A stretch of 64,000 nucleotides of DNA from Stigmatella ashevillena (GTDB lineage: Bacteria > Myxococcota > Myxococcia > Myxococcales > Myxococcaceae): the NCBI RefSeq assembly GCF_028368975.1, contig NZ_JAQNDM010000002.1:9790425-9854424 (forward strand), read 5' to 3'. Positions 8,196 to 64,000 of the stretch are shown one piece after another (within the stretch, counting starts at the first letter, position 1; the number at the start of each line of letters is the position of its first letter). The notes beneath the pieces are model-generated. The model saw nothing but the letters and a program-made list of their open reading frames with translations. It ran no database searches and was not told the origin of the DNA. A program made the position numbers and the translations under genes.

Positions 8196-8200
8196 CTCAG

Positions 8201-8272: not shown

Positions 8273-8331
8273 GTCTTTGCTGCGACCTCAACTACCGCTT
8301 CGGCCTTCTCACGTCAACCGAAGTTTTCAAG

Positions 8332-49613: not shown

Positions 49614-49621
49614 AGCCGGCG

Positions 49622-50074
49622 TCAGCGGCGGGACGCAGCGGGCGCTTCGCTCAGCTCCTTCGAGAAGACCTGATCCTGGTTCCGGAACGCCTTGAACTCC
49701 AGCGCGTTGCCCGAGAAGTCGTGGACGAACATAGAGATGTGCTCGCCCACCTTGCCCTCGAGCCGGACATGGGGCTCCTTGACGAAGCGCACGCCACCGG
49801 CCTTCAGCCGCTGAAGCAGCTCATGGAACGCGTCCCAGTCGAGATTCAGCCCGAAGTGGGGAATCGTGACATCGTTACCGTCGAAGTCGGACTCGCTGGT
49901 CTTCGGTCGCTCGGGCGCGATGTGCGCGACGATCTGGTGCCCGTAGAAGTCGAAGTCCACGTAGTGGTCCGTGCTGCGCCCCTCGGGACAGCCGATGATG
50001 CCCGTGTAGAAGGCCCGCGCCGAGGCGAGATCCGACACGGGGAAGGCGAGATGGAAGTTCTGGATGGCCGCCAT
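49622..50074 (-). CDS. VOC-superfamily (glyoxalase/dioxygenase-like) protein
   Basis: The 150-residue protein starts IQNFHLAFPVSDLASARAFYTGIIG, the classic first VOC module with a metal-ligand His, and has HFGLNLDWDAF and FVHDFSGNALEFKAF with the final Glu ligand. Metal ligands His-His-Glu are therefore present. VOC enzymes include lyases, isomerases, extradiol dioxygenases and resistance proteins; the reaction is unknown here. ATG 50074 follows AAAGGGA. It lies 14 bp downstream of the diiron protein gene, likely in one operon. Confidence 0.88.
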   Translation of the reverse strand: MAAIQNFHLAFPVSDLASARAFYTGIIGCPEGRSTDHYVDFDFYGHQIVAHIAPERPKTSESDFDGNDVTIPHFGLNLDWDAFHELLQRLKAGGVRFVKEPHVRLEGKVGEHISMFVHDFSGNALEFKAFRNQDQVFSKELSEAPAASRR

Positions 50075-50088
50075 GTGGAAGTCCCTTT

Positions 50089-50817: not shown

Positions 50818-50960
50818 GGATTCCGCCTTTGCTCCAAGGGTCGAGTCTTGACCTGGGTCAGAGGGCGGAATCTATCAGCATTCCATTCAAAAGCCGAAAA
50901 ACACAGTTTCGGTTGCTCTTCCACAGGACGTGGAGGTGAGCCTCACGGCCCGGCTCTCGC

Positions 50961-52010
50961 TCAGGAGTAGTCGGCGAGGATCCTGTGCTCGCGCCCGTCG
51001 ACGGTGACTGGTCCGCCGTATGGCAGGACCCACTGTGGACGGGTGTGACCGAACGGCACGCCGACGCAGACGACGGCGTCCGGCTGGTAGTGGGCGACCG
51101 TTTTGACGACCACGTCGTACTGCTCTGCGCGCTCGGCCGCGCGCTGCTTGGCCGATGGGACGCGGCCGGGCCGTGAGCGCGGAGGGCGTGCGGCGACCAC
51201 CGCCTCGACCTGGGCGAGCAGACCACGCTCGCCCATCGACCGGAGCAGGTAACCGACCTCGACCGGTGGCGGCATGTCCTCGGAGGTCTCGACCAGCAGC
51301 ACGTGACCGGCCAGGGCAACGGGTGGGTGCGGGAACCGGTCGGCGGCCAGGATCCAGCCGAGCACCTCGAGGCACCCGCCCCAGGTCGGTCCGGTGACGG
51401 TCCGTGCCGGTCCATGCCAGGCCCAGGGCTCCGTTGGCTCGCGCTCGCCGTACGACGTGAGCGCGGCCGGGTCCTGCCAGCTCGCGCCGAAGTCCTCCGC
51501 CTCGCCGGGCTCGGTCACCTCCAGCGTCTCACCGGTAAGGAGCGCGGCGCGCAGCGAGGCGGCGTGCACAGGGTCGACACCCGGCCCGGGGCCGAGGTGG
51601 ATCTGGGTCGAGCCGCCGTGGAAGCCGGCGACGCCGTTGGACCACAGCCAGTTGAGCAGATTGGTGTTGTCGCTGTAGCCCAGGAACGGCTTCGGGTCGC
51701 GGCGGACGGCATCGGCGTCGAGGTGCGGAATCACGGTGATCTGATCGTCGCCGCCGATCGTCGAGATGACCGCACGGACTGACGGATCGGCGAAGGCCGC
51801 GTTCAAGTCCCGGGCGCGCTCCTGCGGTGAGGCCTCGAGTCGCCGGGTGGTGGGGTACTCCACCGGCACCAGGCCGGTCAGGTCGGCGAGTCGGCGTATC
51901 GCCTGCTCGTGGACGGTCGGGAAGAGGGCCGGTGCGGCGAACGACGGGGACACTACCGCGACCCGGTCCCCGGGTCGGGCCTTGGGCGGCCGGACGACGG
52001 TGTGGCGCAT
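50961..52010 (-). CDS. LD-carboxypeptidase/MccF-family serine peptidase (S66)
   Basis: The nucleophile lies in FLGYSDNTNLLNW (Ser113), with N-terminal PGDRVAVVSPSF as in S66 enzymes; the C-terminal domain with GHTRPQWVLPYGGP would supply the Glu-His partners. S66 proteins either trim peptidoglycan tetrapeptides or, in the MccF branch, detoxify microcin C-type peptide-nucleotides. The Asn-Thr-Asn-Leu context and substrate loop favour MccF-like. The Val/Arg/Asp-rich composition resembles actinobacterial proteins, a hint of transfer. ATG 52010 was chosen over 52046. Confidence 0.82.
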   Translation of the reverse strand: MRHTVVRPPKARPGDRVAVVSPSFAAPALFPTVHEQAIRRLADLTGLVPVEYPTTRRLEASPQERARDLNAAFADPSVRAVISTIGGDDQITVIPHLDADAVRRDPKPFLGYSDNTNLLNWLWSNGVAGFHGGSTQIHLGPGPGVDPVHAASLRAALLTGETLEVTEPGEAEDFGASWQDPAALTSYGEREPTEPWAWHGPARTVTGPTWGGCLEVLGWILAADRFPHPPVALAGHVLLVETSEDMPPPVEVGYLLRSMGERGLLAQVEAVVAARPPRSRPGRVPSAKQRAAERAEQYDVVVKTVAHYQPDAVVCVGVPFGHTRPQWVLPYGGPVTVDGREHRILADYS

Positions 52011-52050
52011 ACGCGGATCAAACCAATCCGTTGGTGGACCGGGCAACCGA

Positions 52051-52075
52051 ATACTTCGACAACAACCCCGGCCAG
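52051..52075 (+). repeat. 25-bp direct repeat, right copy
   Basis: Identical to 48086-48110. This copy is not in a recognisable gene: the same reading frame gives YFDNNPGQ followed by unrelated codons up to 52204. Confidence 0.85.
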
Positions 52076-52190
52076 GAGGGAAGGGGCATCTCCGTCAACT
52101 TCATGGGTGTGGGGTCCCCCAGCAACACTGACAGTGTGGGCCGCTCACGTTCTTCACGGCTCTTTGCGCCTTGTGCGACATACATGCAAC

Positions 52191-52219
52191 ACGGAGGGAG
52201 TTAGCGCCCAACCCTCCGT
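52191..52219. terminator. inverted repeat 3' of the tmRNA remnant
   Basis: ACGGAGGG and CCCTCCGT make a perfect 8-bp stem with a 13-nt loop. It lies 19 bp past the 3' end of the tmRNA remnant on the minus strand, where an ssrA terminator would be. It could also be part of a recombination site. Confidence 0.4.
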
Positions 52220-52237
52220 CATTACGGGATAAAAGAG

Positions 52238-52290
52238 TGGAGGCGGCGGGAATTAAACCCGCGTCGGGCGGTGCGAAGCCTCTGAATAAG
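52238..52290 (-). ncRNA. ssrA: tmRNA (ssrA) 3'-end fragment, candidate attachment site
   Basis: On the minus strand the sequence CCCGACGCGGG-TTTAATT-CCCGC-CGCCTCC-A is the T arm and 3' acceptor strand of a tmRNA: the T stem GCGGG/CCCGC encloses a 7-nt loop, and CGCCTCC would pair with the GGGGGCG that begins many tmRNAs. The loop has T where C56 is usual, and the encoded CCA is lost. No 5' half, tag frame or pseudoknots are found within several hundred bases. Such isolated 3' ends arise when an integrated element duplicates part of ssrA. Confidence 0.7.
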
Positions 52291-52457
52291 TCATCGGGAC
52301 CCAGCCCCAAATGTGTGGGGGGAAGGCAGGAGTTCCGGCCCTTTCTCAGCAGCCTGCCAGGCGGCCGCGGAATGCCCTTGAGCCTCCAGTATTTCTGGGT
52401 AGTGGCAGCCCGTCTCTGAGGCTAAATGGTGCTCCGTCCGTGTGGAGAGCGTAACCC
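52291..52457. other. intergenic region upstream of the hybrid kinase
   Basis: No gene or strong repeat is visible. It separates the tmRNA remnant from the TTG start of the hybrid kinase and does not contain the missing 5' half of ssrA. Confidence 0.4.
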
Positions 52458-55400
52458 TTGATATCGAAGGATGAGCAACAGGAACCCTACGGCGACATCT
52501 TTGTCGGCGACGGCGAGATGGCAAAGCTGATGCGGGCCCATGACTGGGCCTCCACTTCCTTGGGCGCGCCGGAGCGCTGGCCGAACGCGCTGAAGGTGGC
52601 CCTCCGGCTGCTGCTCACCTCGCGGTTCGAGATGTGGCTGGGCTGGGGCCCCGACATCCACTTCTTCTACAACGACGCCTACCGGCCGACGCTGGGAGTC
52701 AAGCACCCGAAGTCGCTCGGGATGCCGACCCGGCTCGTGTGGGCCGAGATCTGGGACGACGTCAAGGATCGCCTGCAGACCGTCTACGCGCGGGGAGAGT
52801 CGACCTGGGACCGGGCCCTGCTGCTCGTCCTGCACCGCAACGGCTATCCCGAGGAGACCTATCACACCTTCTCCTATAGCCCGCTGCTCGGCGACAGCGG
52901 CAAGGTAGAAGGGGTGTTCTGCGCCGTCTCGGAAGAGACGGATCGGGTGATCAGCGAGCGCCGTCTGGCGTCGCTCCGCAAGCTGGCCTCCCGGCTTGCT
53001 CTGGCCTCGAGCCGGGCTGAGGTGATCGACGCTGTCCGGGAGGGGCTCGGCGGCAATCTGCACGATCTCCCCTTCAGCCTGACCTATCTGTTCGACGAGG
53101 AGGGCCAGGGGCATCTGGCCTGCGCGACCGGGATTGAGCCCGGCCACGGCTGCGCGCCTGCGACCCTGGCCCCACGCGGTGGCATCTGGGACTTGAGCTC
53201 CATCTGGGCTGGCGAGGCTCACGTGACGGCGGACCTCTGCGGCCGCGATCCCCTGCCGACGGGCGCCTGGGACAGGCAGCCGACCACCGCCGCGGTGGTC
53301 CCACTGATCGGCCAGGGGGGCGAGCGCCCCCGGGGAGCGATGATCGTCGGGCTGAACCCATACCGCCCGGTGGACGAGAGCTATGTGCCGTTCCTGAAGC
53401 TCCTGGTGGGGCAGGTGGCGTCCAGTCTGGCCAGCGCTGAGGCGCATGAGGCGGCGCGCCAGCGGGCCGCAGCGCTGACAGAGGCCGTGGCGATGCGCCA
53501 GAAGGCGGCCGAGGTCCTGCGCCAAGCCAATGAGCGGCTGACCTCCGAGGTCGAGCTGCGCACCCAGGAGCGCGACCGCTTCCGCACGCTGTTCCAGCAG
53601 GCTCCCAGCTTCATGTGCATCCTGTCCGGCCCGGACCATGTGTTCGAGCTGGTCAACGACGCCTACCAGCAGCTGGTCGGCCACCGCGACCTGAGCGGCC
53701 TTCCGGTGCGCAAGGCCCTGCCGGAGATCGAGGGCCAGGGCTTCTTCGAACTGCTGGACGGGGTCTATACCCAGGGCAAGGCCTTCGTGGGCCGTAACAT
53801 GCCGGTGATGATCCAGCGAACACGCGGTGGTGCGCTGGAGGAGCGTTTCGTCCACCTCGTCTATCAGCCGATCATGGCGCAGGACGGCACAGTGTCCGGC
53901 ATCTTCGTCGACGGCTACGACGTCACGCACCAGAAGCGCGCCGAAGAGCAACTGCAGCACCTGAACGAGACGCTCGAGCAGCGGGTTGCGGCGCGCACGG
54001 ACGAGCTGGCGGACGCGCTTGCGCGCCTGCGGCGGGAGACGGCCGAACGGCGGGAAATGGAGGCGGCTCTCCGTCAGGCCCAGAAGATCGAGGCCCTCGG
54101 CAAGCTCACGGGGGGCGTCGCTCACGACTTCAACAACCTCCTGCAGGTTATCAGCGGAAACCTGCAACTGCTGGCGAAGGACATCACCGGCAACACCCGG
54201 GCCGAGACCCGCATGCAGAATGCCCTGGCCGGAGTGGCGCGAGGTTCGAAGCTGGCCTCACAGCTCTTGGCCTTCGGCCGCCGTCAGCCGCTGGAGCCCA
54301 AGGTGGTGCACCTGGGCCGCTTGCTGAAGAACATGGACGATCTGCTCCGGCGGGCGCTGGGCGAGGACATCGAGATCGAAACCGTGGTCTCGGGCGGGCT
54401 GTGGAACACCCTGGTCGACCCGAATCAAATCGAGAACGCCATCCTCAACCTGGCCATCAACGCCCGGGACGCCATGCGGGACGGCGGCCGGCTGACGATC
54501 GAAGCGGGCAACGCCCTGCTGGACGACGAGTACGCGCGCCAGCACGAGGAGGTGAAGCCCGGTCAATATGTGATGATCGCCGTCACCGACACCGGCGCCG
54601 GGATCCCTCCGGCCATCCTGGAGCGCGTGTTCGAGCCCTTCTTCAGCACCAAGCCGGAAGGGAAAGGGACCGGTCTGGGGCTCTCGATGGTGCACGGACT
54701 GGTCAAGCAGTCCGGCGGCCATATCAAGCTCTACAGCGAGGTCGGCGAGGGCACGACCATCAAGCTGTACCTGCCGCGTGTCGCCCAGAGCGAGGACATT
54801 CTCACCGATATCAGCACGGCGCCAGTGCGCGGCGGGACCGAGACCATCCTGGTGGCCGAGGACGACGACGACGTGCGAGAGACCGCGGTCGGCCTGCTCT
54901 CCGAACTCGGCTACCGGGTGCTCAAGGCCCGCGATGCGGCCAGCGCCCTGAGCGTCATCGAGAGCGGAATCCCCGTCGACCTCTTGTTCACGGACGTGGT
55001 GATGCCCGGCCCGCTGCGGAGCCCGGAACTTGCCCGCAAGGCCAAGGAGCGCCTCCCGCACATCGGGGTGCTGTTCACCTCGGGCTACACCGAGAACGCC
55101 ATCGTCCACCACGGGCGGCTGGACCCCGGGGTAGAGCTGCTCTCCAAGCCCTACACGCGCGAGGCCCTGGCCCGGAAGGTGCGGCACGTGCTGGGCAACG
55201 AGGCCCAGCATCGGCTGGTCAAGCAGCAGCGGACCGAAGCGCCCGCCCCAGTCCCGGCGGCGGAGGACGTGCCACGCCGCCTCACGATCGTGCTGGTCGA
55301 GGACGACGAATTCATCCGTTCAAGCACGGCCGAGCACTTGGTGGACCAGGGTCACGTGGTAGTCGAGGCCCAGGACGCCGAGAGCGCGCTCACCGCGCTT

Positions 55401-55652
55401 TCCGCCCACCCGGCGGATGTGCTCCTGACCGACGTGGGGCTGCCGGGGCGCTCGGGCGCGGAGATGGCACGCGAGGCGGTCGCCCGCTGGCCTCACTTGA
55501 GGGTGATTTTCGCCAGCGGCGACGACGCGGGATTGGTGGAATCGGGCCTGTTGGACGCCGTGGTATTGCTGAAGCCCTACACGCCCAAGGACCTGGCGGC
55601 AGCCCTGAACAAGGAGGCGGTCCAGCGGACGAGCCAGCGCAGGTCCTCCTGA
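52458..55652 (+). CDS. hybrid sensor kinase PAS-GAF-PAS-HisKA-HATPase-REC-REC
   Basis: This 1064-residue soluble kinase has, in order, a PAS-like domain (about 20-160), a GAF-like domain (170-335), a coiled coil, a PAS domain (370-510), a second coiled coil, HisKA with the phosphorylated His in GGVAHDFNNLLQ (about 555), an ATPase domain with INARDAM, DTGAGIPP and GTGLGLSM, and two receivers (about 795-915 with FTDVVMPG, 938-1050 with LTDVGLPG). The layout is common in alphaproteobacteria. The start is a TTG at 52458 preceded by GGAG; ATG 52518 is the alternative. It has no linked receptor or output gene. Confidence 0.88.
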   Translation: MISKDEQQEPYGDIFVGDGEMAKLMRAHDWASTSLGAPERWPNALKVALRLLLTSRFEMWLGWGPDIHFFYNDAYRPTLGVKHPKSLGMPTRLVWAEIWDDVKDRLQTVYARGESTWDRALLLVLHRNGYPEETYHTFSYSPLLGDSGKVEGVFCAVSEETDRVISERRLASLRKLASRLALASSRAEVIDAVREGLGGNLHDLPFSLTYLFDEEGQGHLACATGIEPGHGCAPATLAPRGGIWDLSSIWAGEAHVTADLCGRDPLPTGAWDRQPTTAAVVPLIGQGGERPRGAMIVGLNPYRPVDESYVPFLKLLVGQVASSLASAEAHEAARQRAAALTEAVAMRQKAAEVLRQANERLTSEVELRTQERDRFRTLFQQAPSFMCILSGPDHVFELVNDAYQQLVGHRDLSGLPVRKALPEIEGQGFFELLDGVYTQGKAFVGRNMPVMIQRTRGGALEERFVHLVYQPIMAQDGTVSGIFVDGYDVTHQKRAEEQLQHLNETLEQRVAARTDELADALARLRRETAERREMEAALRQAQKIEALGKLTGGVAHDFNNLLQVISGNLQLLAKDITGNTRAETRMQNALAGVARGSKLASQLLAFGRRQPLEPKVVHLGRLLKNMDDLLRRALGEDIEIETVVSGGLWNTLVDPNQIENAILNLAINARDAMRDGGRLTIEAGNALLDDEYARQHEEVKPGQYVMIAVTDTGAGIPPAILERVFEPFFSTKPEGKGTGLGLSMVHGLVKQSGGHIKLYSEVGEGTTIKLYLPRVAQSEDILTDISTAPVRGGTETILVAEDDDDVRETAVGLLSELGYRVLKARDAASALSVIESGIPVDLLFTDVVMPGPLRSPELARKAKERLPHIGVLFTSGYTENAIVHHGRLDPGVELLSKPYTREALARKVRHVLGNEAQHRLVKQQRTEAPAPVPAAEDVPRRLTIVLVEDDEFIRSSTAEHLVDQGHVVVEAQDAESALTALSAHPADVLLTDVGLPGRSGAEMAREAVARWPHLRVIFASGDDAGLVESGLLDAVVLLKPYTPKDLAAALNKEAVQRTSQRRSS

Positions 55653-55768
55653 GCTGGGACTCATTTGTGCTCGTTGACAGGGGGCCCTGGGGGTACGTTG
55701 TTTCTGGCCCTACGCCCTGTCGCAGAGCAGCGGAACACGCACGGATGAAACGACATACGGAGGAAACA

Positions 55769-57313
55769 GTGAAAGCGATCGTACGTTCGGCACGCGCCAG
55801 CTGGACTCTCGGGCTTGCATGCCTCCTGGCGGCATGCGGTGGAAACGACGACAACGGTTCCCCTGCACCCACGCCTTCCGCTGCGCAGTCATGCGCCGAC
55901 CTGGCTGGCAAGACGATCGGAGGCGCGATGATCAGCGCCACGAACCTCGTCGTCGCCACAGGCACCGTGCCCGAGTATTGCAATGTGATCGCGAAGATCC
56001 CGCCGCAGTTGAACTTCGAGGCGCGCTTGCCGTCCCAGTGGAATGGCAAGCTGCACTACAACGGGGGGGGCGGTTTCAGCGGCATGATGACCCCTCCCAG
56101 TGTGGAGGCGCTCTCCAAGGGGTTCGCGGACGTGGGGAGTGACGCCGGGCATTCCGCCGACCCCTTCACCGCCGGCTGGGCGATGAACGACCAGGTCGCA
56201 CTGGTGAACTTCGCGTTCGCCTCGGTCCCCACCGTCACGAATGCAACACGCGAGATTCTGAAGGTGCGCTACGGAAAGGACGCCGACCGGTCGTACTTCG
56301 AGGGATGCTCAAACGGTGGCCGTGAAGCGCTGATGATGGCGCAGCGATACCCCGCTCAGTTCGACGGCATCATCTCGCGGGCGCCCGCCTACAATTTCAC
56401 CGGCTTGCTGCTGGCGTTCAACCGCACCGCCAAAGCCCTTGCTGCACCCGGCGGGGCATTCACCTCGGGCAAGGTCGCCACGCTGGCCAGCGCCGTGCGT
56501 ACCGCCTGTGACGCGCAGGATGGCATCGTGGACGGCGTGGTCTCGAATCCGCAAGCCTGCACCTTCAATCCTGCGACGCTGCGTTGCGCGGGAGGCGCGG
56601 ATACCGGCGATGCCTGCCTGTCCGACGCACAGCTCGCAGTCGTCCAGTCCTGGACCACCGACTTCTCGCTCTCGACCGGCAATTTCCTCAATACGGGATG
56701 GGCCCTGAGCGGCAACGAGGACGGTCCGGTTGCCTGGTCCGCCTGGGTGACAGGCGCCAACAACGATCCCAGCACCGCAGTGCAGTTCAGCTTTCAGCTG
56801 GGCTTGGTGCGATTCATGCTCAACAAGGATCCAGCGCTCAACACGCTGACCTACGACCCGAATGCCAATCCCGGTGCCGTGCTGAGCTTGTCGGCGCTGT
56901 TGGATGCGGCCGATCCGGAGCTCACCCCGTTCCGCGCCCGCGCTGGCAAGCTGATCCTCTGGCATGGAGAGAACGACTCCGCGATCAGCTATCGCGGCAC
57001 GGTCCGGTACTACACGCAGGCGGTGAATGCCGCGGGAGGCCAGGCGAACGCCGACCCGTTCCTGAAGTTGTACCTTGCACCGGGCGTGGACCATTGCGCG
57101 GGAGGCCCAGGCGCGGACACCGTCGACCTGTTGTCGGCACTGGATGCGTGGGTGACGGTTGGCACAGCGCCTGGCGACCTGACGGCGATCAAGGCGGATG
57201 AAAGCGGAAAGACAGTCCTGAGCCGTCCGCTGTGCCGCTACCCGAACTACCCGCGGTACAAGGGCAGCGGCGATGTGAACGCGGCCTCGAGCTTCATGTG
57301 TACCGCGCCTTGA
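55769..57313 (+). CDS. tannase/feruloyl esterase-family lipoprotein
   Basis: The serine hydrolase has GCSNGGREA with Cys180-Ser181 and, near the C-terminus, DHCAGGPG; this is the CS-D-HC arrangement of tannases and feruloyl esterases, where a disulfide ties the nucleophile to the His. The Asp is probably in the WHGENDSAIS segment. A lipobox LLAAC (Cys23) anchors it in a membrane. GTG 55769 is chosen because ACGGAGG lies five bases upstream; ATG 55745 would lengthen the signal peptide. It probably releases phenolic acids from plant-type esters. A hairpin follows the gene. Confidence 0.88.
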   Translation: MKAIVRSARASWTLGLACLLAACGGNDDNGSPAPTPSAAQSCADLAGKTIGGAMISATNLVVATGTVPEYCNVIAKIPPQLNFEARLPSQWNGKLHYNGGGGFSGMMTPPSVEALSKGFADVGSDAGHSADPFTAGWAMNDQVALVNFAFASVPTVTNATREILKVRYGKDADRSYFEGCSNGGREALMMAQRYPAQFDGIISRAPAYNFTGLLLAFNRTAKALAAPGGAFTSGKVATLASAVRTACDAQDGIVDGVVSNPQACTFNPATLRCAGGADTGDACLSDAQLAVVQSWTTDFSLSTGNFLNTGWALSGNEDGPVAWSAWVTGANNDPSTAVQFSFQLGLVRFMLNKDPALNTLTYDPNANPGAVLSLSALLDAADPELTPFRARAGKLILWHGENDSAISYRGTVRYYTQAVNAAGGQANADPFLKLYLAPGVDHCAGGPGADTVDLLSALDAWVTVGTAPGDLTAIKADESGKTVLSRPLCRYPNYPRYKGSGDVNAASSFMCTAP

Positions 57314-57332
57314 CCTCGCGGATGGAGGCTTG

Positions 57333-57351
57333 AGCACCGCGCTGCGGTGCT
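57333..57351 (+). terminator. hairpin after the tannase gene
   Basis: AGCACCGC-GCT-GCGGTGCT is a perfect 8-bp stem with a 3-nt loop, 19 bp after the tannase stop. The rest of the 245-bp gap up to the sigma factor gene shows no supportable gene. Confidence 0.55.
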
Positions 57352-57558
57352 GCTCGAGCGTCGCCCCCTTCAGCATCACCCCTCGACCGGTGGAGGCGGC
57401 CAGCGCGACGTGGGTACCAACCTCTGGCGGTGAAAAGCCCTGACATTCCAGGAGGTTGGAAGGAACAGGAAAAATCAGCAGGGCCGCGAATCCATTCGCC
57501 CCGTGGCTGCCTCTTATCCTGCGAATGGGGATTCTCCCCATCGCACGAGGCAGGTCCC

Positions 57559-58077
57559 ATGGGTTCGACCACGACTCCCGACGCGTTGCTGCTCGCGGCC
57601 CACGCCGGTGACCGCGACGCGATGGTGCACCTGCTCCAGCTTCAGCAGCCGAACCTCCGGCGGTACGCGCAGAAGCGCTGCCTCATCAGCGACGTGGACG
57701 ACGCGGTCCAGGAAGCCCTGCTGGTGATGTCCCGCCACCTGACCGCCGTGCGCAAGCTGGCGTCGTTCTCCGGGTGGATGTTCAAGATCGTCCAGCGCGA
57801 GTGCCGCCGCCTGGCCCGCACGGTGCTGAAGCAGGACCCCTACGAGGAAGCGCTCGTGGACCAGTGGGTGTCCGCGCACACGCCGGACTCGCTGCGGCTG
57901 GACATGGTATCGGCGCTGGAGTCACTGCCGCCGCAGTACCTGGAGGTCGTCATGCTGCGCGACTTCGAAGCGCTCTCCATCCGCGAGATGGCCGAGCGCC
58001 TGTCGCTGGACCCGGCGGCGGTGAAGAGCCGCCTGCACCGCGCCCGCGTGATGATCCGCGAATACCTGCTGGCCTGA
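57559..58077 (+). CDS. ECF-type RNA polymerase sigma factor
   Basis: The 172-residue protein has sigma region 2 (RYAQKRCLISDVDDAVQEALLVMSRHL, then FSGWMFKIVQRECRRLAR) and region 4 with a helix-turn-helix (ALESLPPQYLEVVMLRDFEAL, MAERLSLDPAAVKSRLHRAR). No sigma region 3 or C-terminal extension is present. ATG 57559 was chosen over the longer frame from 57430. The next gene, a membrane protein 34 bp downstream, stands where an anti-sigma factor is often found but lacks a recognisable zinc or anti-sigma motif. Confidence 0.9.
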   Translation: MGSTTTPDALLLAAHAGDRDAMVHLLQLQQPNLRRYAQKRCLISDVDDAVQEALLVMSRHLTAVRKLASFSGWMFKIVQRECRRLARTVLKQDPYEEALVDQWVSAHTPDSLRLDMVSALESLPPQYLEVVMLRDFEALSIREMAERLSLDPAAVKSRLHRARVMIREYLLA

Positions 58078-58111
58078 TTCCTCAACCCCTTCTTCTGACC
58101 GGAGTCCTTCC

Positions 58112-58621
58112 ATGGCGAACCCCTTGTCCACCCTTGGCATCATCCACACGCTCGTGAGCGTGCCTCCCATCGTCTTCGGCGTCTGGGCCTTCGTGCGTGA
58201 CGGGCGCATCGACCCGGGGACGCGCGTCGGCAAGGCGTACGTCGCCAGCATGGTGACGTCGGTGGTGACGTCGTTCGGCCTGTCGAGCACGGGCGGCTTC
58301 AACCCGGGCCACGCGCTGGGGCTGCTGGCGCTGCTGCTCATGGCGGTGGGTGCGGCGGCTCCGAGCCTGGGCGTGTTCGGCCGCGCCACGGAGTACGTGC
58401 GGACCCTCACGTACTCCGCCAGCTTCATGGTGTTGCTGGTGCCGGGCATCAACGAGACGCTGACCCGACTGCCCGCGGGCAGGCCCCTGGCGGACAGCCC
58501 CCAGTCCCCGGTGGTGCAGGCGGCCCTGGCGACGTTGCTGGGCCTGTTCCTCTGCGGCGCCACGTACCAGGTGATGCGGCTCCGCGCGCGGACGCAGCCC
58601 CGGCCCCACCTTCAGGCGTGA
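58112..58621 (+). CDS. four-TM membrane protein downstream of the sigma factor
   Basis: The 169-residue protein has about four TM helices (residues 8-26, 44-60, 66-84, 138-156) joined by short loops and a short Arg-rich C-terminal tail. CCGGAG precedes ATG 58112. It resembles small DUF2306-like or cytochrome-b561-like membrane proteins in layout, but no His pair supports heme binding. Its place after an ECF sigma gene suggests co-expression, and possibly regulation of the sigma factor. Confidence 0.75.
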   Translation: MANPLSTLGIIHTLVSVPPIVFGVWAFVRDGRIDPGTRVGKAYVASMVTSVVTSFGLSSTGGFNPGHALGLLALLLMAVGAAAPSLGVFGRATEYVRTLTYSASFMVLLVPGINETLTRLPAGRPLADSPQSPVVQAALATLLGLFLCGATYQVMRLRARTQPRPHLQA

Positions 58622-58879
58622 AGCCCGGGGGGCCCAGGTCTGGTGGGGCCCGGCGGGAAGATGAAGGGGCGTGTCGATTCGTGAGCCCCTGATTCGACGT
58701 GGGGGAGAAGGCCCGCGTTTTCACCTGAACGGAGCACGCCATGGACACCACCCTTTCCTCATCTCCACGGGGCGAGCCTCCGCATGGGAGCGGGGAGGAT
58801 CCTCGAACACCTCGGTGTTCCTGGCGGCTGGCGCAAGGCAGACGAGGCCCGGCTCCGTCAAACCGGCCTCCCATTTTTC
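58622..58879. other. intergenic region, no supportable gene
   Basis: The 258-bp stretch separates the membrane-protein gene from the convergent monooxygenase. A short plus-strand frame starts at 58741 after GGAG, but its product is composed of Pro/Arg/Ser and I do not regard it as a gene. Confidence 0.35.
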
Positions 58880-60364
58880 TTATGCTCGGCACCACTGGGT
58901 GAGCGCGTCACGCAGCCCCGAATCCGTGCCGTCTCCCACCCACGCGACATGGCCATCGGGCCGAACCAGAACGGCCGAGGGCGCAGCGACCGCACCGAAC
59001 ACCGGGAGTTCCCACGCGCCCGTGTATCGGGCATCGATCCGCCGAACCTGCTCCACCCACGGAGTGATGTCGAAGGCGCCCGGCTCGCCGAGGTTGAGGA
59101 AGACCGGTCGGGCCTCGTGCAGCAGCGAGAACACGCGCTTCGGACCGCTCTCCGTGCTCAGCTCGAGGTCGGGCATGCGGCGCCCGAGCAGTGGGTGCCC
59201 CGCACCGAGATCGTAGTGGACGTCGAGGCCCGACATCATCGCGGCGTACTGCTTGCGAGGCTGCTCCATCTTCAGCAGCTCGACCATGTTCTCGCGCAGG
59301 GCCTCGGTGCGATCGTCGCCGCGGCCGAGCGCGATCTGGGCCATCGTCAGGCGGAGCACGCGGGCACCGATGGGGTACCGCTCGGCGTGGTAGGTGTCAA
59401 GGAGGGTCTCCGGCGAGATGCCCTTTACCACCTGCGCGAGCTTCCAGCCGAGATTCACTGCGTCCTGCACGCCGATGTTGAGTCCCTGTCCGCCCGTGGG
59501 GGCATGCACGTGCGCTGCGTCGCCGGCGAGGAGCACCCGTCGCTCCCGGTAGGACGCCGCCTGCCGAGCCAGGTCGGAGAATCGGGAGAGCCAGGTCGGA
59601 TTGCGAACACCGAAGTCGGTCCCGTAGACCGCAATCAGCGCCGCGCGCAGATCATCCAGGGTCGGCTCGATTCTGTTGCCGACCTGCGGCTCGACCAGCA
59701 CGACGCTGGCGCGCTTCCCGTCGTCGAGCTTGCCGATGGCGTTGACGCCCTTCTCTCCACGGCGGATGCCCCACGCGGGCTCCTCGGTCATCTCGACCTC
59801 GGCGATGAGGAAGCTGGTCGACGCGTCCCAGCCGGGGAACTCGATCCCGGCCATCTTGCGAATAAGGCTCCGACCTCCGTCGCACCCGACGAGGTACGTC
59901 GCCCGGAGCGAGGCGCCGTCCGACAGCTCGACGTCGACGCCAATGTCGTCCTGCGCGAACCCCGTCACCTCACGCCCTCGATAGAACGTCACCGGCAGCT
60001 CGGCGACCCACTCGGCCATGATGCGCTCGATGCGGGCCTGCCTGAGCGCGAGCCCGTAGTTGTGGCGTGTCGGGAAGTCGCTGATGTCGAGCGGGATGAA
60101 CGAGAAGCCCGCGACCTGCATGATCTGCCCCTGCGAGAGGAAGCGCTCGGCGACGCCTCGCTGATCGAACACCTCGATCGTGCGGGCGTGCAGGCCGCCA
60201 GCGCGTGACCCGGGGAGCTCCTGATTCACGCGACGCTCGACGACGGCGACGTCGATCCCCGCCAACGCCAACTCGGCTGCCAGCATCAGACCTGTCGGGC
60301 CGCCTCCGGCGATCAGCACTGCATGGTTGTTCATGGCCACACTGCGTCCGGATTCGTTGTGCAT
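58880..60364 (-). CDS. FAD-dependent monooxygenase (group A, rifampicin-monooxygenase-like)
   Basis: The 494-residue flavoprotein has the FAD Rossmann motif LIAGGGPTGLMLAAELALAG, GCDGGRSLIRK, and the second FAD motif LLAGDAAHVHAPTGGQGLN. The C-terminal thioredoxin-like domain (VFSLLHEARPVFLNLG, VLVRPDGHVAWVG) is typical of aromatic hydroxylases such as PgaE and Rox. It would hydroxylate an aromatic substrate with NAD(P)H and O2. GGAGGAA precedes ATG 60364. No redox partner is needed. It could serve polyketide tailoring or antibiotic inactivation. Confidence 0.9.
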   Translation of the reverse strand: MHNESGRSVAMNNHAVLIAGGGPTGLMLAAELALAGIDVAVVERRVNQELPGSRAGGLHARTIEVFDQRGVAERFLSQGQIMQVAGFSFIPLDISDFPTRHNYGLALRQARIERIMAEWVAELPVTFYRGREVTGFAQDDIGVDVELSDGASLRATYLVGCDGGRSLIRKMAGIEFPGWDASTSFLIAEVEMTEEPAWGIRRGEKGVNAIGKLDDGKRASVVLVEPQVGNRIEPTLDDLRAALIAVYGTDFGVRNPTWLSRFSDLARQAASYRERRVLLAGDAAHVHAPTGGQGLNIGVQDAVNLGWKLAQVVKGISPETLLDTYHAERYPIGARVLRLTMAQIALGRGDDRTEALRENMVELLKMEQPRKQYAAMMSGLDVHYDLGAGHPLLGRRMPDLELSTESGPKRVFSLLHEARPVFLNLGEPGAFDITPWVEQVRRIDARYTGAWELPVFGAVAAPSAVLVRPDGHVAWVGDGTDSGLRDALTQWCRA

Positions 60365-60810
60365 GGGTTCCTCCGCGCCCGCTGTTTTTCGCGTGCGGCC
60401 GACGTCTGTGCCTCACAGAGGGGGGCTTGTGGCAATCCCCCGGGCGTGGCATACAGCTGGATGTAGCAAGGGGGAGATGTCGCGTCCCGCATGCGCCTCC
60501 CCGAAGCGAAACGTCCCCTCCAAAGCTCAATGCCACTCAGCTGAGCAAGATCGGGTCACGGCCCGGGCCGCTTCTCCGGAACGCACAAGCCACATCCCGT
60601 CCTGCCTGAAGCACGAACGCGGGGAGTACGGATGCACGCAGTTCTTGCTCCTTCTGCTACGATAAAAGCAAGGCGACCAACCGTGGTCTAACAGCGTCAG
60701 GATTTGCTCCAAATCGTCATCGCCGTCTGGAATGCACTGGTCGTGGCGCAGAGGGCACAGCAGGACGTGCTGCCTGATATCTACCGGCGTTGGAGACGAT
60801 GCCTCCGTCG
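60365..60810. other. 446-bp stretch without a supportable gene
   Basis: Short open frames occur on both strands, such as 60527-60712 minus and 60704-60898 plus, but their composition is not protein-like and they lack ribosome sites. Part of the plus-strand text (VWNALVVAQRAQQDVLPDIY) could be a worn fragment. GC falls toward 60.7 kb, as at the edge of mobile DNA. Confidence 0.35.
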
Positions 60811-61200
60811 TTATTTCGCTGCAACGGGATGCTCCGCAAGCGAAATGTTGAGCGCATTAAGCAACTGGTCTGTAAAAGCCTCAAACGCCTGGAGGTGAAA
60901 CAAGTGCATGCTCAAGGGTTCACCCTCCTTGAAACCGAGCTTCATGCTGTGGGGCTTCGCACAAAAAGCTGCAAGCTCGGCAGTCACTTTGGATTCGCCA
61001 TGCACGAGTAGATGTCGAACCAGCCCCATGCCCTCGATGGTCTCGGCCCATGTTTCGACGGTGCAGAAGGCAAGAAACACTCGATGAAGGCCGTCATAGA
61101 GCCGCTTTCTCTGCCATGTATCCAGCCGGTTGCGCCACGCGTCCTCCCACGCAGCAGACATGGCGGGGTCAGTCTCGGCTTGGTGACGAAGCCGCCGCAA
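60811..61200 (-). CDS. hypothetical helical protein, start uncertain
   Basis: The frame has convincing protein composition: DPAMSAAWEDAWRNRLDTWQ, VFLAFCTVETWAETI, MGLVRHLLVHGESKVTAELA and EPLSMHLFHLQAFEAFTDQL, indicating a helical soluble protein of at least 129 residues. The open frame starts with TTG at 61200 and protein-like codons continue a little upstream, so the 5' end may be cut off by the rearranged DNA at 61.25 kb. ATG 61161 is a possible internal start. I do not recognise the family. Confidence 0.5.
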   Translation of the reverse strand: MRRLRHQAETDPAMSAAWEDAWRNRLDTWQRKRLYDGLHRVFLAFCTVETWAETIEGMGLVRHLLVHGESKVTAELAAFCAKPHSMKLGFKEGEPLSMHLFHLQAFEAFTDQLLNALNISLAEHPVAAK

Positions 61201-61271
61201 TTCCCGAAACCCGTTGCCTCGAAGAATCGCGTCTCTATTCCTCAGCCTGGTGCACCTTCCCGCGCCACCCT

Positions 61272-61391
61272 GTGGAGAGCGAGGATCCCTTCGGCACCGA
61301 CGAGAAGGATCTGCCGCTCGATCTCATCTGCGGCGTTATCCAGAACCACCTCCTGGCGCTGCTGCCTTCCGAGACCGCCAAGCCCGGTTGA
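61272..61391 (+). pseudogene. bestrophin-family channel, C-terminal fragment
   Basis: The frame reads VESEDPFGTDEKDLPLDLIC and ends IQNHLLALLPSETAKPG. The block E-x-PFG-x-D-x-x-DLPLD-x-x-C is the hallmark near the C-terminus of bacterial bestrophin-like chloride channels (YneE type). Nothing upstream in any frame looks like the four TM helices such a protein needs, and the DNA before it belongs to another gene on the opposite strand. It is therefore a remnant. Confidence 0.65.
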
Positions 61392-61527
61392 CAAATACAG
61401 ACGCATGTTTAGTGCGACTGGGTCGTGAGGACCCTGTCGCCAGTCCAGACGGAGAGGCAGATGGGGTGTGAATCCCCGCCGAGTCCGGCTCGTGCGCGGC
61501 GGTATCACCACCGCGCACAGCTGCCGC

Positions 61528-62223
61528 TTAGTTCTGCGGGCAGAAGACGATGTCGAAGTCCTCGGCGTTGCAGGCCGCCATGACCGCGTCGTCCCCGGAC
61601 CAGGAGTAGGCCTGGTTGCACGAGGCATCGAAGTACTTCGCCACTGTGCTGTTCGGGTTGTCCCGGTCCCGGCTGACGCAGGCGATGACCTTGCCCGCGG
61701 CGTTGCGGAGCTTGCCCGTCTCGGGACAGCCCGGCAGCAGATCCTTCACACAGCTCCGGGTCTGCCCGCTGCAGGTCGTCCCCGTCCCCAAGTCGTAGGG
61801 GATGATCTTCAGAGGCAGGTTGTGGGCATCCACATAGCTGAGGTTGAACCAATCCCAGCTGGCGTACCCAAATGCATTCTCGTTGAACCCAAACTCCGCC
61901 AGCGAGTGGTGCTCAAAGCCCGGGTCCTCGCCCTGGCGGAAGCCCCAGTACCGCTTGGAGATCATATGTTCGGTGTTTGAACCAATGGTTCGGCAGGCCT
62001 CGGCCCCCGACGCCAGGTTGCCCCCGGAGATGTTGTTGCCGGCGAAGGTGACGTTGAAGCCGCACCGGTTGATGAAGCGCAGCGTGGTCTTCCCATCGCC
62101 CTTGACCGCGCAGCCCAGCGCCTGGGTCTCGCTGCCCACCTCTTCGAACTCGCCCGTCTCCTCTATCCCCGCGCAGCCCAGACCGGACAACATCGTCATC
62201 AGTACAACACCGTATGCCTTCAT
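61528..62223 (-). CDS. thaumatin-family lipoprotein
   Basis: The 231-residue protein has a lipobox (LSGLGC) and a thaumatin-like domain: LRFINRCGFNVTFAGN, WDWFNLSYVDAHNLPLKIIP, CSGQTRSCVKDLLPGCPE, then SCNQAYSWSGDDAVMAACNA and DFDIVFCPQN as the closing Cys signature. Thaumatin-like proteins are common in plants and fungi, some binding or cleaving beta-1,3-glucans, and are sparse in bacteria. GGGAGGGG precedes ATG 62223. The upstream region is AT-rich. Confidence 0.85.
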   Translation of the reverse strand: MKAYGVVLMTMLSGLGCAGIEETGEFEEVGSETQALGCAVKGDGKTTLRFINRCGFNVTFAGNNISGGNLASGAEACRTIGSNTEHMISKRYWGFRQGEDPGFEHHSLAEFGFNENAFGYASWDWFNLSYVDAHNLPLKIIPYDLGTGTTCSGQTRSCVKDLLPGCPETGKLRNAAGKVIACVSRDRDNPNSTVAKYFDASCNQAYSWSGDDAVMAACNAEDFDIVFCPQN

Positions 62224-62289
62224 GGATGTCCCCTCCCTCGTTTGGAATGAATGGCGAAAGCCATTTCCGAGCCCGCTTAATTAGAATTA

Positions 62290-62324
62290 ACCGCTAAGCA
62301 AGTAAAGCTGAAATAGCGGTTTTT
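62290..62324 (+). terminator. hairpin with T-tract in the AT-rich gap upstream of the thaumatin gene
   Basis: ACCGCTA and TAGCGGT pair across a 17-nt loop and are followed by TTTT on the plus strand. It could end plus-strand transcription; the large loop makes this uncertain. The rest of 62325-62514 shows no gene. Confidence 0.4.
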
Positions 62325-62514
62325 CATCGAGTGCGGTAACCAAGGTGAAGGAGTGTGGATCAGAATTTGCTGGCAGACTCCCAAGGGGACCTGGCCCAGC
62401 CTTGACCCGCCCCCCCCCCGGACAGCCAGGGCGGGTTCGCCCCCAGTTCCTGCCAAGGAGCTCGCACAAGCGCGTGTTGCCACCCACCCGGGAGCCGGGC
62501 CTTTGGGCCGGAGA

Positions 62515-62539
62515 TGGGCTTGCCCCGATTTGGTGGACA
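62515..62539 (+). repeat. IS3-family element, left inverted repeat
   Basis: Starts TGGGCTTGCCCC and ends GGTGGACA; identical in inverse to 63752-63776. It lies seven bases past the orfB stop. Confidence 0.9.
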
Positions 62540-62545
62540 GTGGGT

Positions 62546-63421
62546 TTAAGCTGCCAACGTAACAGGTAGTGCGGTTCGTTCAAACTCCAATGGGGTCATG
62601 TAGCCCAGCGTCGAGTGCCGCCGGGTGCGGTTGTAGAAGACCTCGATGTACTCAAAGAGGGCCGAGCGGGCCTGGTGACGCGTATCGAACTGGGTCTGGT
62701 AGACCAGTTCCATCTTCAGGCTGCTGAAGAAGCTCTCCACGACGGCGTTGTCCCAACAGTTGCCCTTCCTGGACATGCTGCACTGGATGCCGCGGGAGGC
62801 GAGGGCGTGCTGGTACTCGGCGCTGGCGTACTGGCTGCCTCGATCCGAATGGTGGATGAGCCCCTTGGGAGGCTGTCGTCCCTCCAGCGCCATCTCCAGG
62901 GCCCCGAGCACCAGAGGGGTGTCGATGTGCTCACTCATAGACCAACCCACTACCATGCGTGAGAACAAGTCCAGCACCACCGCCAGGTACAGCCACCCCT
63001 CTCCCGTCCAGATATAGGTGATGTCCGTGGACCAGGTGCTGTTGGGCTTGTCGGGAGAGAAGTCTCGGTTCAAGACGTTGGGTGCCACGGGGTTGGGGTG
63101 TTTGGAGTCCGTGGTGCGCACCGCTCGGCGCTTCTTTCGTGCTTGGAGCTTCTGCTCTTCCATGAGGCGAGCCACTCTCTTGCGGCTCACCTTGCGCCCT
63201 CGGGCACGCATCTCCGCATGCACCCGGGGGCTGCCATAGGTGCCACGGCTCTCCTGGTGCACCTTGGCCACCTCCTCGGCCAGTTGTTTGTCCTGCTGCT
63301 GGCGCGCTGACTCCGGGCGCTCTCTCCAGGCGTAGTAGCCTGAGCGCGACACGCCCAACTGCTCACACAGGAACTCCACCGGGAAGTGGGCCTTCTGCGC
63401 GTCGATGAACTCGAACTTCAC
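62546..63421 (-). CDS. IS3-family transposase, OrfB (DDE integrase domain)
   Basis: The 291-residue protein has an HTH_21-like N-terminal segment (FLCEQLGVSRSGYYAWRERP) and an rve integrase core: first Asp in TWSTDITYIWTGEGWLYL, second in HHSDRGSQYAS, and Glu in NCWDNAVVESFFSSLKMEL. A GTG at 63421 overlaps the orfA stop, but the active product is expected to be an OrfAB fusion made by -1 frameshifting. The catalytic triad and ends are intact. Confidence 0.93.
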   Translation of the reverse strand: MKFEFIDAQKAHFPVEFLCEQLGVSRSGYYAWRERPESARQQQDKQLAEEVAKVHQESRGTYGSPRVHAEMRARGRKVSRKRVARLMEEQKLQARKKRRAVRTTDSKHPNPVAPNVLNRDFSPDKPNSTWSTDITYIWTGEGWLYLAVVLDLFSRMVVGWSMSEHIDTPLVLGALEMALEGRQPPKGLIHHSDRGSQYASAEYQHALASRGIQCSMSRKGNCWDNAVVESFFSSLKMELVYQTQFDTRHQARSALFEYIEVFYNRTRRHSTLGYMTPLEFERTALPVTLAA

Positions 63422-63723
63422 TTCGAGCCCTCCTTCGCGAAGAAGGCCGCTGCTTTTTTTAAGAAGTCCCGCTCCATGAGCAACTGCCGGTTCTCCTTCC
63501 TCAGCTGCAGCAGTTCCTCCCGCTCAGATGGACTCAACGGCTCGGGCCCGGAGGGGGCCTCGCTTCGCTCGGCGTGCTGCACCCACTGGCGCAACGCCGA
63601 CTCCGTCAAGTCCAGGTCCTTGGCCACCTGCGACAGCGACTTGCCTCCTTCTCTGGCAAGCCTCACTGCTTCGGCCTTGAACTCCTCGCTGAACTTCCGC
63701 CTCTTCCTTCGCTCCATCGACAC
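63418..63723 (-). CDS. IS3-family transposase, OrfA (helix-turn-helix)
   Basis: The 101-residue protein starts RRKRRKFSEEFKAEAVRLAR, has the HTH SLSQVAKDLDLTESALRQWV and a C-terminal leucine-zipper-like helix (LSPSEREELLQLRKENRQLL). Near its end the coding strand has TTA-AAA-AAA-GC at 63452-63462; slippage by -1 there enters the orfB frame without meeting a stop. OrfA alone usually regulates transposition. Confidence 0.93.
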   Translation of the reverse strand: MSMERRKRRKFSEEFKAEAVRLAREGGKSLSQVAKDLDLTESALRQWVQHAERSEAPSGPEPLSPSEREELLQLRKENRQLLMERDFLKKAAAFFAKEGSK

Positions 63724-63751
63724 TCCTCCTTGTGCTTCGACTTATCGGGGG

Positions 63752-63776
63752 TGTCCACCAAATCGGGGCAAGCCCA
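63752..63776 (-). repeat. IS3-family element, right inverted repeat
   Basis: Perfect inverse copy of the left end, 28 bp upstream of the orfA start on the minus strand. Confidence 0.9.
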
Positions 63777-63857
63777 TTTAGAGGTACTGGAGCAGGAGTT
63801 GAACCACACGGTGACTCGCGATAGCGCGGGCTCTGCGTTCGGTACGCGGAGTCACCC

Positions 63858-63931
63858 ATGAAGAATGAGACACGGCGGTGGGTAGAAGCAGGGATCGTCC
63901 TGGCCAAGGAACCCAAGGCGGTCGCGTGCCC
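63858..63931 (+). pseudogene. N-terminal fragment of a small protein, interrupted
   Basis: ATG 63858 follows CGGAG and reads MKNETRRWVEAGIVLAKEPK, continuing AVACP, which looks like a genuine start. From about 63926 the codons change character and a different frame reads like transposase. The gene appears cut by that insertion. Family not recognised. Confidence 0.4.
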
Positions 63932-64000
63932 TGCTTGGTGCCTCTACCTCGGACAAACTTCACGAGGTTCCACGGCGTCTTCGCTCCAGGCGCCAAACTG
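63926..64000 (+). pseudogene. IS91-type (Y2) transposase fragment, runs off the window
   Basis: The frame reads VPCLVPLPRTNFTRFHGVFA followed by PGAKL at the window edge. The block LVP-x-PR-x-x-x-x-RFHGVFAP-x-x-KLR is characteristic of the C-terminal half of IS91/IS801-like putative transposases. No start or N-terminal half precedes it, so it is truncated on the left. Confidence 0.6.

What the first reader, a model, noticed from the sequence alone, without database searches (positions are those of the whole stretch)
52238..64000. Isolated tmRNA 3' end suggests an element integrated at ssrA, extending right from 52.24 kb
The T arm and acceptor strand of a tmRNA occur on the minus strand at 52238-52290 without the 5' half. 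Integrases that use ssrA leave the intact gene on one side and a copied 3' end at the far side. Given the orientation, the element should lie at higher coordinates, where gene content becomes patchy: hybrid kinase, tannase, monooxygenase, remnants, IS elements. The lack of CCA and the T-loop change show this copy is not functional.
Basis: partly seen in the sequence, partly recalled or inferred. Interest (0 to 1): 0.75.

Follow-up and report, generated by a model that had tools for sequence, protein, structure and literature searches.

The report
Phage-satellite docking scar from tmRNA end
The lone tmRNA tail in this myxobacterial window is one of about thirty scattered copies of the DNA site where phage-satellite-like islands appear to splice themselves and small gene cassettes into the chromosome, so it is a worn scar of that traffic and not the edge of one island.

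Summary
The tmRNA-like end is real: 25 nt at 52238-52262(-), T arm plus acceptor strand. The genome's only intact ssrA lies 7.1 Mb away. The fragment is one of 29 cores (ssrA's own included) in this Hyalangium-group genome; reversed-pattern control 0. The window copy is a double scar: on its low side the last ~66 bp of a tyrosine-integrase gene, ending 16 bp from the core; on its high side 21 nt of another element's arm. Relatives of that integrase sit directly beside ssrA, tRNA genes or cores without a tRNA gene. A 17.2-kb member in ssrA carries integrase, excisionase, primase, protease and capsid genes, like a capsid-encoding phage satellite. Close pairs of cores share a strand (37 of 41). 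Core-to-core cassettes recur in different surroundings: a toxin-immunity cassette in two genera (85.7%), a deacetylase cassette twice in this genome (98%). I conclude that satellite integrases act on tmRNA-derived cores across these genomes and shuffle satellites and small cassettes in an integron-like way. The enzyme step is inferred, and how cores first left ssrA is unexplained.

The parts
52238..52262 (-). tmRNA-derived recombination core (T arm + acceptor strand), with 2 T-loop changes
52263..52283 (-). 21-nt remnant of left (distal) arm 'LA' of an element lying at higher coordinates
   Evidence: matches LA arms of several other copies right up to the core edge
52157..52221 (+). remnant of the 3' end of a tyrosine-integrase gene (about the last 22 codons, stop included; frame broken, stop lost)
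   Evidence: 76.8% over 82 bp to the integrase end plus spacer of L161 (Archangium lansinium), E 2.5e-11, 66 bp of it inside the integrase gene
52222..52237 (.). 16-bp spacer between former integrase stop and core (end of right arm 'RD')
   Evidence: the same 16-bp spacing in G005 (stop 7580045, core 7580062), in G000 (6903768, 6903785) and in L150 and L161
50961..52046 (-). LD-carboxypeptidase-like gene (Peptidase_S66), possible cargo
   Evidence: lies in 50934-52348, which is outside the blocks matched in G001 and G004
50934..52348 (.). segment between the two blocks that are conserved, but apart, in relatives
52458..55652 (+). hybrid histidine kinase (GAF, PAS, HisKA, HATPase_c, receiver), conserved in other surroundings in G001, G004 and G020
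52263..64000 (.). window part of the 13.7-kb stretch between this core and the next same-strand core (C2:9856404)

Best explanation
The fragment is a composite attachment-site scar. Phage-satellite-like islands of Myxococcaceae carry a tyrosine integrase whose gene ends 16 bp (one integrase subfamily) or about 90-98 bp (the other) from a 25-nt core copied from the 3' end of ssrA. Integration into ssrA leaves ssrA intact on the integrase side and a distal arm plus core on the other side (seen for a 17.2-kb element in G005). In Hyalangium- and Archangium-group genomes the cores have also become established at dozens of other places, where they serve as docking sites: elements and small integrase-less cassettes, bounded by cores, accumulate in same-strand arrays with interchangeable left and right arms, and the intervals are gained, lost and relocated by recombination at the core, presumably by satellite integrases acting in trans (inferred). 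At the window, the integrase end of one element and the distal end of another met at one core; both bodies then decayed or were deleted.
For: 29, 28 and 42 cores in three long-contig genomes, reversed control 0. At least four left-arm and four right-arm families in different combinations around one core. Integrase remnant beside the window core, E 2.5e-11. Core with at most 3 mismatches within 260 bp after the integrase match in 26 of 63 integrase loci examined; ARAGORN on 35 of these loci: an intact tmRNA beside the integrase in 5 (L147, L152, L159, L165, L166), a tRNA gene in 13, neither in 17. ssrA followed directly by an integrase-side arm in 6 of 16 genomes. G005 element 7562824-7580086 with integrase, excisionase-like, primase, terminase-small-like, protease, capsid and kinase genes, bounded by ssrA and by LA-core-native ssrA terminator. 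Same strand in 37 of 41 close pairs. Toxin-immunity cassette matching core edge to core edge in G000 and G020 with no match in 3-kb flanks; deacetylase cassette at two G000 sites, 98.25%, starting exactly at the core edge. Sister genomes G001 and G004 share left flank and core but switch arm directly after the core, with 13.6 against 4.7 kb before homology resumes.
Against: No excision, circular form or integrase activity was observed; all is comparative. No joined empty site was found for a non-ssrA core, and host similarity in several cases stops 4-11 bp outside the core. How the first cores left ssrA is unexplained: a strict ssrA integrase should not do this. Most copies have no integrase nearby: of 7 PF00589 matches in G000, 2 lie beside a core and 1 fragment 2.6 kb from one. 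A 25-bp core might also allow homology-driven exchange. The third toxin cassette (9103041-9105170) matches only in part. Some shuffled units, such as the desaturase gene, have no core beside them in relatives, so cores are not the only route of gene shuffling here.
Confidence: 0.78

Rival explanations
1. A single island integrated at ssrA, with the window fragment as its displaced far end and the island body at 52-64 kb.
For: An ssrA island of the canonical form exists in G005; the next core to the right brackets 13.7 kb.
Against: ssrA is 7.1 Mb away and has its own nearby copy at 2707418; 29 copies; integrase remnant on the other side.
Confidence: 0.06
2. A dispersed RNA-derived repeat (SINE- or REP-like) that spread tmRNA 3' ends through an RNA intermediate.
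For: Many copies; some arms look like hairpins (by eye, not folded); a group II intron reverse transcriptase lies between two cores.
Against: Arms switch precisely at the core; integrase genes sit at fixed spacing from it; 33 of 71 non-identical cores break a T-stem pair and only 1 shows a compensated change. Target-site duplications or poly-A tails were not searched for.
Confidence: 0.05
3. Cores were all placed by ordinary integration at ssrA or tRNA genes, then carried round the genome by chromosomal rearrangement and homologous recombination; integrases no longer act on them.
For: Synteny is broken between relatives at the loci compared; ssrA carries element arms in several genomes.
Against: The 98%-identical deacetylase cassette starts at the exact core edge in two unrelated contexts; the arm switch directly after the core in sister genomes; integrase-core pairs without a tRNA or tmRNA gene in Hyalangium and Archangium.
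Confidence: 0.2
4. A decayed second copy of a tmRNA gene (gene duplication).
For: 23 of 25 nt match ssrA.
Against: The sequence upstream of the T arm is not ssrA but an arm shared with other copies.
Confidence: 0.01

Closest known systems
Genomic islands in tRNA/tmRNA genes (Islander; PMC4383910, start of abstract seen in listings)
   Same: Tyrosine integrase beside the 3' end of ssrA; displaced 3' fragment as direct repeat at the far end
   Different: Here cores number 28-47 per genome in five Hyalangium- or Archangium-group genomes, and in G000 28 of 30 loci around matches hold no tRNA or tmRNA gene
Dehalococcoides ssrA-GIs (PMC3146451, passages read)
   Same: Tandem modules downstream of ssrA bounded by ssrA 3' direct repeats, some without an integration module
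   Different: Serine recombinase there; all repeats within 100 kb downstream of ssrA there, genome-wide here
Capsid-forming PICI (cfPICI) and other phage satellites (PMC11389934, passages read; gene content of cfPICI partly recalled)
   Same: Islands (15.6 and 17.2 kb measured here) with integrase, excisionase-like gene, primase, small-terminase-like and own capsid genes, plus an accessory kinase module
   Different: Myxobacterial; helper phage unknown; core copies spread as docking sites; no single intact packaging set seen
Integrons and CALINs (definitions in PMC11389934, passages read)
   Same: Same-strand arrays of short cassettes bounded by a recombination site, most without a recombinase gene nearby
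   Different: Core is a tmRNA T arm and acceptor strand; nearby integrases match phage integrase families; cassettes are scattered over many arrays
Mx alpha prophage units with sitBAI toxin/immunity genes (PMC6070905, PMC5562445, passages read)
   Same: Myxobacterial mobile units in tandem that carry lipoprotein toxins and immunity genes
   Different: About 80 kb per unit (100 kb in the second paper), confined to one region; no tmRNA is mentioned in either text (term searches)

Membership tests
ssrA/tRNA genomic island (tyrosine integrase) | integrase gene directly beside an intact ssrA or tRNA gene | tested here: met
   for relatives: G005 7578828-7580045; 5 loci with tmRNA and 13 with tRNA of 35 checked. 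Not met at the window itself (ssrA 7.1 Mb away)
ssrA/tRNA genomic island (tyrosine integrase) | displaced ssrA 3' end as direct repeat followed by native flank | tested here: met
   G005 7562824: LA-core then the ssrA terminator seen after ssrA in G050
ssrA/tRNA genomic island (tyrosine integrase) | sites confined to ssrA or tRNA genes | tested here: not met
   28 of 30 G000 loci around the matches (a few of these matches weak) hold no tRNA or tmRNA gene; 17 of 35 integrase loci hold neither
capsid-forming PICI / phage satellite | integrase and excisionase at one end | tested here: met
capsid-forming PICI / phage satellite | own capsid, prohead protease, portal, small terminase and primase genes | tested here: met
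   only when two members are taken together: G005 (PF05065, PF04586, terminase-small-like E 8e-7 in a frame that also holds a portal remnant, VapE-like) and G000 (capsid, PF04586, portal E 2e-58); no single intact set was seen
capsid-forming PICI / phage satellite | no tail or lysis genes | tested here: inconclusive
   none among the 25 of 75 PHROG families shown for 109 array genes; no full search for absence
capsid-forming PICI / phage satellite | mobilised by a helper phage | not testable with these tools
   needs induction experiments
integron / CALIN | IntI-type integrase | tested here: inconclusive
   nearby integrases match PF00589 plus Phage_int_SAM_3 and PHROG integrases; an IntI model was not run
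integron / CALIN | attC-type folded sites | not tested
   no attC model run
Dehalococcoides ssrA-GI | serine recombinase and repeats within 100 kb of ssrA | tested here: not met
   tyrosine integrases; genome-wide copies
tmRNA gene | full-length tmRNA over the Rfam cut-off | tested here: not met
   20.3 bits against 47

The most novel reading that the evidence does not exclude
Hyalangium and Archangium run an integron-like system built from phage satellites: tmRNA-derived cores at dozens of chromosomal places are live docking sites through which satellite integrases, in trans, move small integrase-less cassettes (toxin-immunity pairs, enzymes, kinase modules) between arrays and between species.
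Probability: 0.35. Interest if true: 0.8.

Novelty: new variant of a known kind. Interest (0 to 1): 0.55.

Why it matters
tRNA/tmRNA integrases are usually taken as strictly site-specific. Here the target fragment itself seems to have become a genome-wide docking site, giving core-bounded gene shuffling in large genomes of social bacteria, with toxin and immunity genes among the cargo. If the integrases do act at these cores, this is a directly testable route by which myxobacterial toxin-immunity repertoires and kinase modules are exchanged.

Tried and rejected
A single ssrA island at this locus: rejected, because ssrA is 7.1 Mb away and there are 29 copies. A tmRNA pseudogene: rejected, because the upstream sequence is an arm shared with other copies. 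An RNA-borne repeat: judged unlikely, because T-stem changes are not compensated and arms switch at the core. The terminator-like RB arm as a native tRNA terminator: judged unlikely, because it is the stretch between the integrase stop and the core and it follows ssrA in five genomes, although it also follows a tRNA-Glu on C1. Empty sites for non-ssrA cores: looked for with nine 200-base flanks in 58 family genomes, own included, at most five matches scored per genome; host similarity stopped 4-11 bp from the core, no relative held both flanks joined, and the desaturase flank turned out to be a gene that is itself shuffled. A 654-bp duplicated gene fragment beside one core was not explained.

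Rows dropped before counts: of 71 integrase loci (53 from genome contigs, 18 from viral contigs), one search examined 63; L179, L187, L213, L214, L215, L218, L219 and L220 were left out; in 7 of the 63 fewer than 260 bp were held after the integrase; L207 and L208 repeat the sequences of L155 and L154. ARAGORN was then run on 35 of the loci, chosen by me to cover the kinds seen. In one search, 39 of 40 matches were read out (2699983 was missed by the script's margin). The strand test uses the 99 matches, which include ssrA itself and miss copies with more than 3 mismatches (such as 6888239 and 9105115). In one search matches under 35% identity were dropped. The cargo scans used 109 genes from 16 stretches of two genomes, and only the top 25 families were shown; the 39-gene comparison set from the left part of this window has one protein kinase and no integrase or capsid family among the 25 shown. 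One search also gave one weak integrase-like match (32% over 97 residues) after ssrA in G013, which I did not follow.
Full report
What is there. On the minus strand of the window, 52238-52262 is a 25-nt copy of the T arm and acceptor strand of tmRNA, differing from the genome's own ssrA at two T-loop positions. ARAGORN calls no tmRNA in the window, and the Rfam model gives 20.3 bits, below its cut-off of 47. The remark about a missing CCA does not hold, because the intact ssrA of this genome also ends in ..CTCCACTC. That ssrA, the only tmRNA match over the cut-off, lies at C2:2710053-2710416, while the window is C2:9790425-9854424.

It is one of many. The core with up to 3 mismatches occurs 29 times in this genome, 28 times in G005 (same genus) and 42 times in G013 (same family), ssrA's own end included, with 0 matches to the reversed pattern in each. 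In the 12 named genomes reached through integrase loci the counts are 45 in Hyalangium versicolor, 47 in Archangium lansinium, 40 in A. violaceum, 15 and 12 in two Pyxidicoccus, 8 and 5 in two Corallococcus, 2 to 5 in four Myxococcus and 1 in Citreicoccus, again with control 0 in all 12. These 12 were picked because they carry the integrase. G006, which is of the window's genus, and the H. versicolor genome (G076) show the same size and corresponding contig coordinates for their matches, so I take the window's genome as belonging to the GTDB genus that holds H. versicolor (inference).

Anatomy of the copies. Around the core stand a few families of left arms (LA about 160 bp, LB about 134 bp, LC about 37 bp, LD short) and right arms (RA and RB about 100-160 bp, RC the native ssrA terminator, RD), in many combinations (the grouping is mine). 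Of 71 cores that are not identical to the consensus, 33 break a T-stem pair and 1 shows a two-sided compensated change, so the core behaves as a DNA site and not as an RNA. Neighbouring cores within 35 kb lie on the same strand in 37 of 41 cases (14 of 14 in G000, 10 of 11 in G005, 13 of 16 in G013; one-sided binomial 5e-8), and there are more close pairs than random placement gives (14 against a mean of 2.5 in G000).

The right arms RB and RD are integrase ends. Integrase genes of the PF00589 family end near a core in antiparallel orientation: G000 5534369-5535556 is 93 bp from a perfect core, and G000 6902551-6903768 and G005 7578828-7580045 are each 16 bp from one. Among 63 of 71 related integrase loci from named genomes and viral contigs, 26 have a core with at most 3 mismatches within 260 bp after the integrase match. 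ARAGORN on 35 of these loci finds an intact tmRNA gene right after the integrase in 5 (L147, L152, L159 in Myxococcus; L165, L166 in two distant MAGs), a tRNA gene there in 13 (such as Asp, Leu, Val, Arg), and neither in 17, among them Hyalangium and Archangium loci with perfect or near-perfect ssrA-type cores. In 9 of 18 viral contigs the contig stops 39-60 bp after the integrase match, as expected if a provirus was cut at its attachment site (my inference). ssrA is followed directly by an RB or RD arm in 6 of 16 genomes.

The window copy itself. The 81 bp next to the core on the low side, 52157-52237, align with the integrase end plus spacer of L161 (A. lansinium): 76.8% over 82 bp, E 2.5e-11, 66 bp of it inside the integrase gene; one frame reads ALCDIHATRRELAPNPP against PACDIRATRMEEAANHP in intact genes. 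The frame is broken and the stop is lost. On the high side 21 nt of arm LA remain. So the site is where the integrase end of one element and the distal end of another met. Beyond it, 50934-52348 (with a Peptidase_S66 gene) is outside the blocks matched in G001 and G004; the flanking blocks 48236-50933 and 52349-55658 are 91-93% identical there but 65-73 kb apart and in opposite relative orientation. The next cores in the other direction are at C2:9856404, 9858629 and 9862479, all on the same strand.

What the autonomous elements look like. In G005 a 17.2-kb element sits in ssrA: ssrA, core, integrase, excisionase-like helix-turn-helix protein, VapE-like primase, a terminase-small-like frame, a transposase-like gene (by eye), prohead protease (PF04586), capsid protein (PF05065), then a DUF2381-kinase-kinase module, arm LA, core, and the ssrA terminator as seen directly after ssrA in G050. 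G000 holds a 15.6-kb relative (cores at 6903785 and 6888239) with integrase, portal, protease and capsid genes and the same kinase module. The five STK kinase matches of 35% identity or more in the fetched stretches of G000 and G005 lie 1.5-5.7 kb to the left of an LA-type core on the same strand; more distant paralogues of the partner kinase (35-36%) lie 5-7 kb from other cores. This is the layout of a capsid-encoding phage satellite; neither member is intact, and no helper phage is known.

Core-bounded cassettes move. A 2.7-kb cassette with a toxin gene (Tox-REase-5) and its immunity gene (Imm52) at G000 6883743-6886478 matches G020 577161-580008 from core edge to core edge (85.7% over 2,585 bp plus the first 75 bp at 80%), with no match in 3 kb on either side. 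A polysaccharide-deacetylase cassette (PF01522) occurs at G000 6886504-6888238 and 5717246-5718774, 98.25% identical over 1,487 bp, starting exactly at the core edge behind different left arms and with unrelated left flanks; its gene is split in two frames at one of the sites. A third copy of the toxin cassette (9103041-9105170) matches only over part of its length. Sister genomes G001 and G004 share one hotspot: the same left gene and core, then a different right arm, with 13.6 kb against 4.7 kb before homology resumes; the same gene is not followed by a core in the 17 other loci compared, some of which may be paralogues at 70-75% identity.

How it most likely works. Shown by comparison: integrase-core adjacency, the ssrA target, arm mosaicism, same-strand arrays, core-bounded cassettes in different contexts. 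Inferred: that the integrases catalyse these exchanges, also in trans on cassettes without an integrase; that the window site was made by such events and then decayed. Not explained: how the first cores came to lie away from ssrA and tRNA genes. Host similarity ends 4-11 bp outside several cores, and I found no joined empty site.

Comparison with what is known. The parts are familiar: tRNA/tmRNA islands (PMC4383910, listing), the tandem ssrA islands of Dehalococcoides, which use a serine recombinase and keep all repeats within 100 kb of ssrA (PMC3146451, passages), and capsid-forming satellites (PMC11389934, passages). A secondary site for an island is known for SGI1 (PMC2297512, listing only). 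The Mx alpha units carry lipoprotein toxins in tandem copies in one region (PMC6070905, PMC5562445, passages). In the held library one paper holds both 'Myxococc' and 'phage satellite', and by its title and abstract start it concerns the social lives of viruses in general. Searches for Myxococcus with tmRNA and integrase, for myxobacteria with tmRNA and islands, for integron-like or cassette terms with tmRNA, and for Hyalangium or Archangium with prophage terms gave no listed title or abstract start on this system (10 to 15 rows shown of 16, 426, 19 and 606). I therefore rate it a new variant of a known kind: a satellite-driven, tmRNA-core recombination network.

Verdict. The local feature is a worn scar; the interest lies in the genome-wide system it belongs to.

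Noticed in passing
L031:5660-6856(-) and 4392-5468(-), G000 C2:5556659-5557855: A divergent tyrosine-recombinase-like gene (PF00589 E 6e-4, below cut-off) beside a ParA-like gene sits about 120 bp from an RA-arm core; the usual first catalytic arginine looks replaced (my reading by eye). It may be the recombinase of RA-type elements.
   Followed up: partly
L137, L139 and L140, 93-113 bp after the integrase match: In these Pyxidicoccus and Corallococcus loci the integrase is followed by a 3'-end fragment like that of tRNA-Asp (the complete gene is there in L138 and L186) but no tRNA gene is found, so displaced cores may not be limited to ssrA.
   Followed up: partly
L021, G000 C2:7576009-7576662: A 654-bp fragment copied from a stretch 10 kb away that includes a caspase-domain gene (99.2% identical) lies close beside a core; the gene pair behind it sits nearer the core at the related locus C2:8919366.
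   Followed up: partly
L040:6752-7751, G000 C1:358751-359750: A fatty-acid desaturase gene (PF00487) of about 1.0 kb occurs in nine genomes at 93-99% identity, mostly with unrelated flanks.
   Followed up: partly
L041, G000 C1 tRNA-Glu at 6276-6348: An RB-type arm follows directly after a tRNA-Glu gene, as if a relative of these elements had used that tRNA.
   Followed up: no
L037:6886-8217(+), G000 C2:9090885-9092216: A group II intron reverse transcriptase gene lies in a 2.2-kb core-to-core interval.
   Followed up: no
L034:10520-11692(-), G000 C2:6904420-6905592: A phosphoglycerate kinase gene (PF00162) lies between two cores; its start resembles gammaproteobacterial enzymes (recall).
   Followed up: no
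G000 C2:2330942-2330996: A left arm LA that ends without a core, about 640 bp from an arm-core copy.
   Followed up: no
L009:2232-3146(-), G000 C2:9856531-9857445: A TsiV-type immunity gene with a partner gene lies in the 2.2-kb core-to-core interval just past the window's right end.
   Followed up: partly
L223:3394-5139(-) and relatives: Kinases of the array genes match PADLOC anti-phage kinase models (PD-T4-6, mad6, Stk2) in 7-10 of 109 genes, which may only reflect the shared kinase fold.
   Followed up: no
window 62546-63717(-): A two-gene IS3-like transposase pair (rve and HTH_Tnp_1); a gene with the same first 40 residues as its small one lies near another core at C2:4678614.
   Followed up: no
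window 8200-8402(-): tRNA-Glu(CTC) and tRNA-Gln(CTG) genes, apparently ordinary.
   Followed up: no
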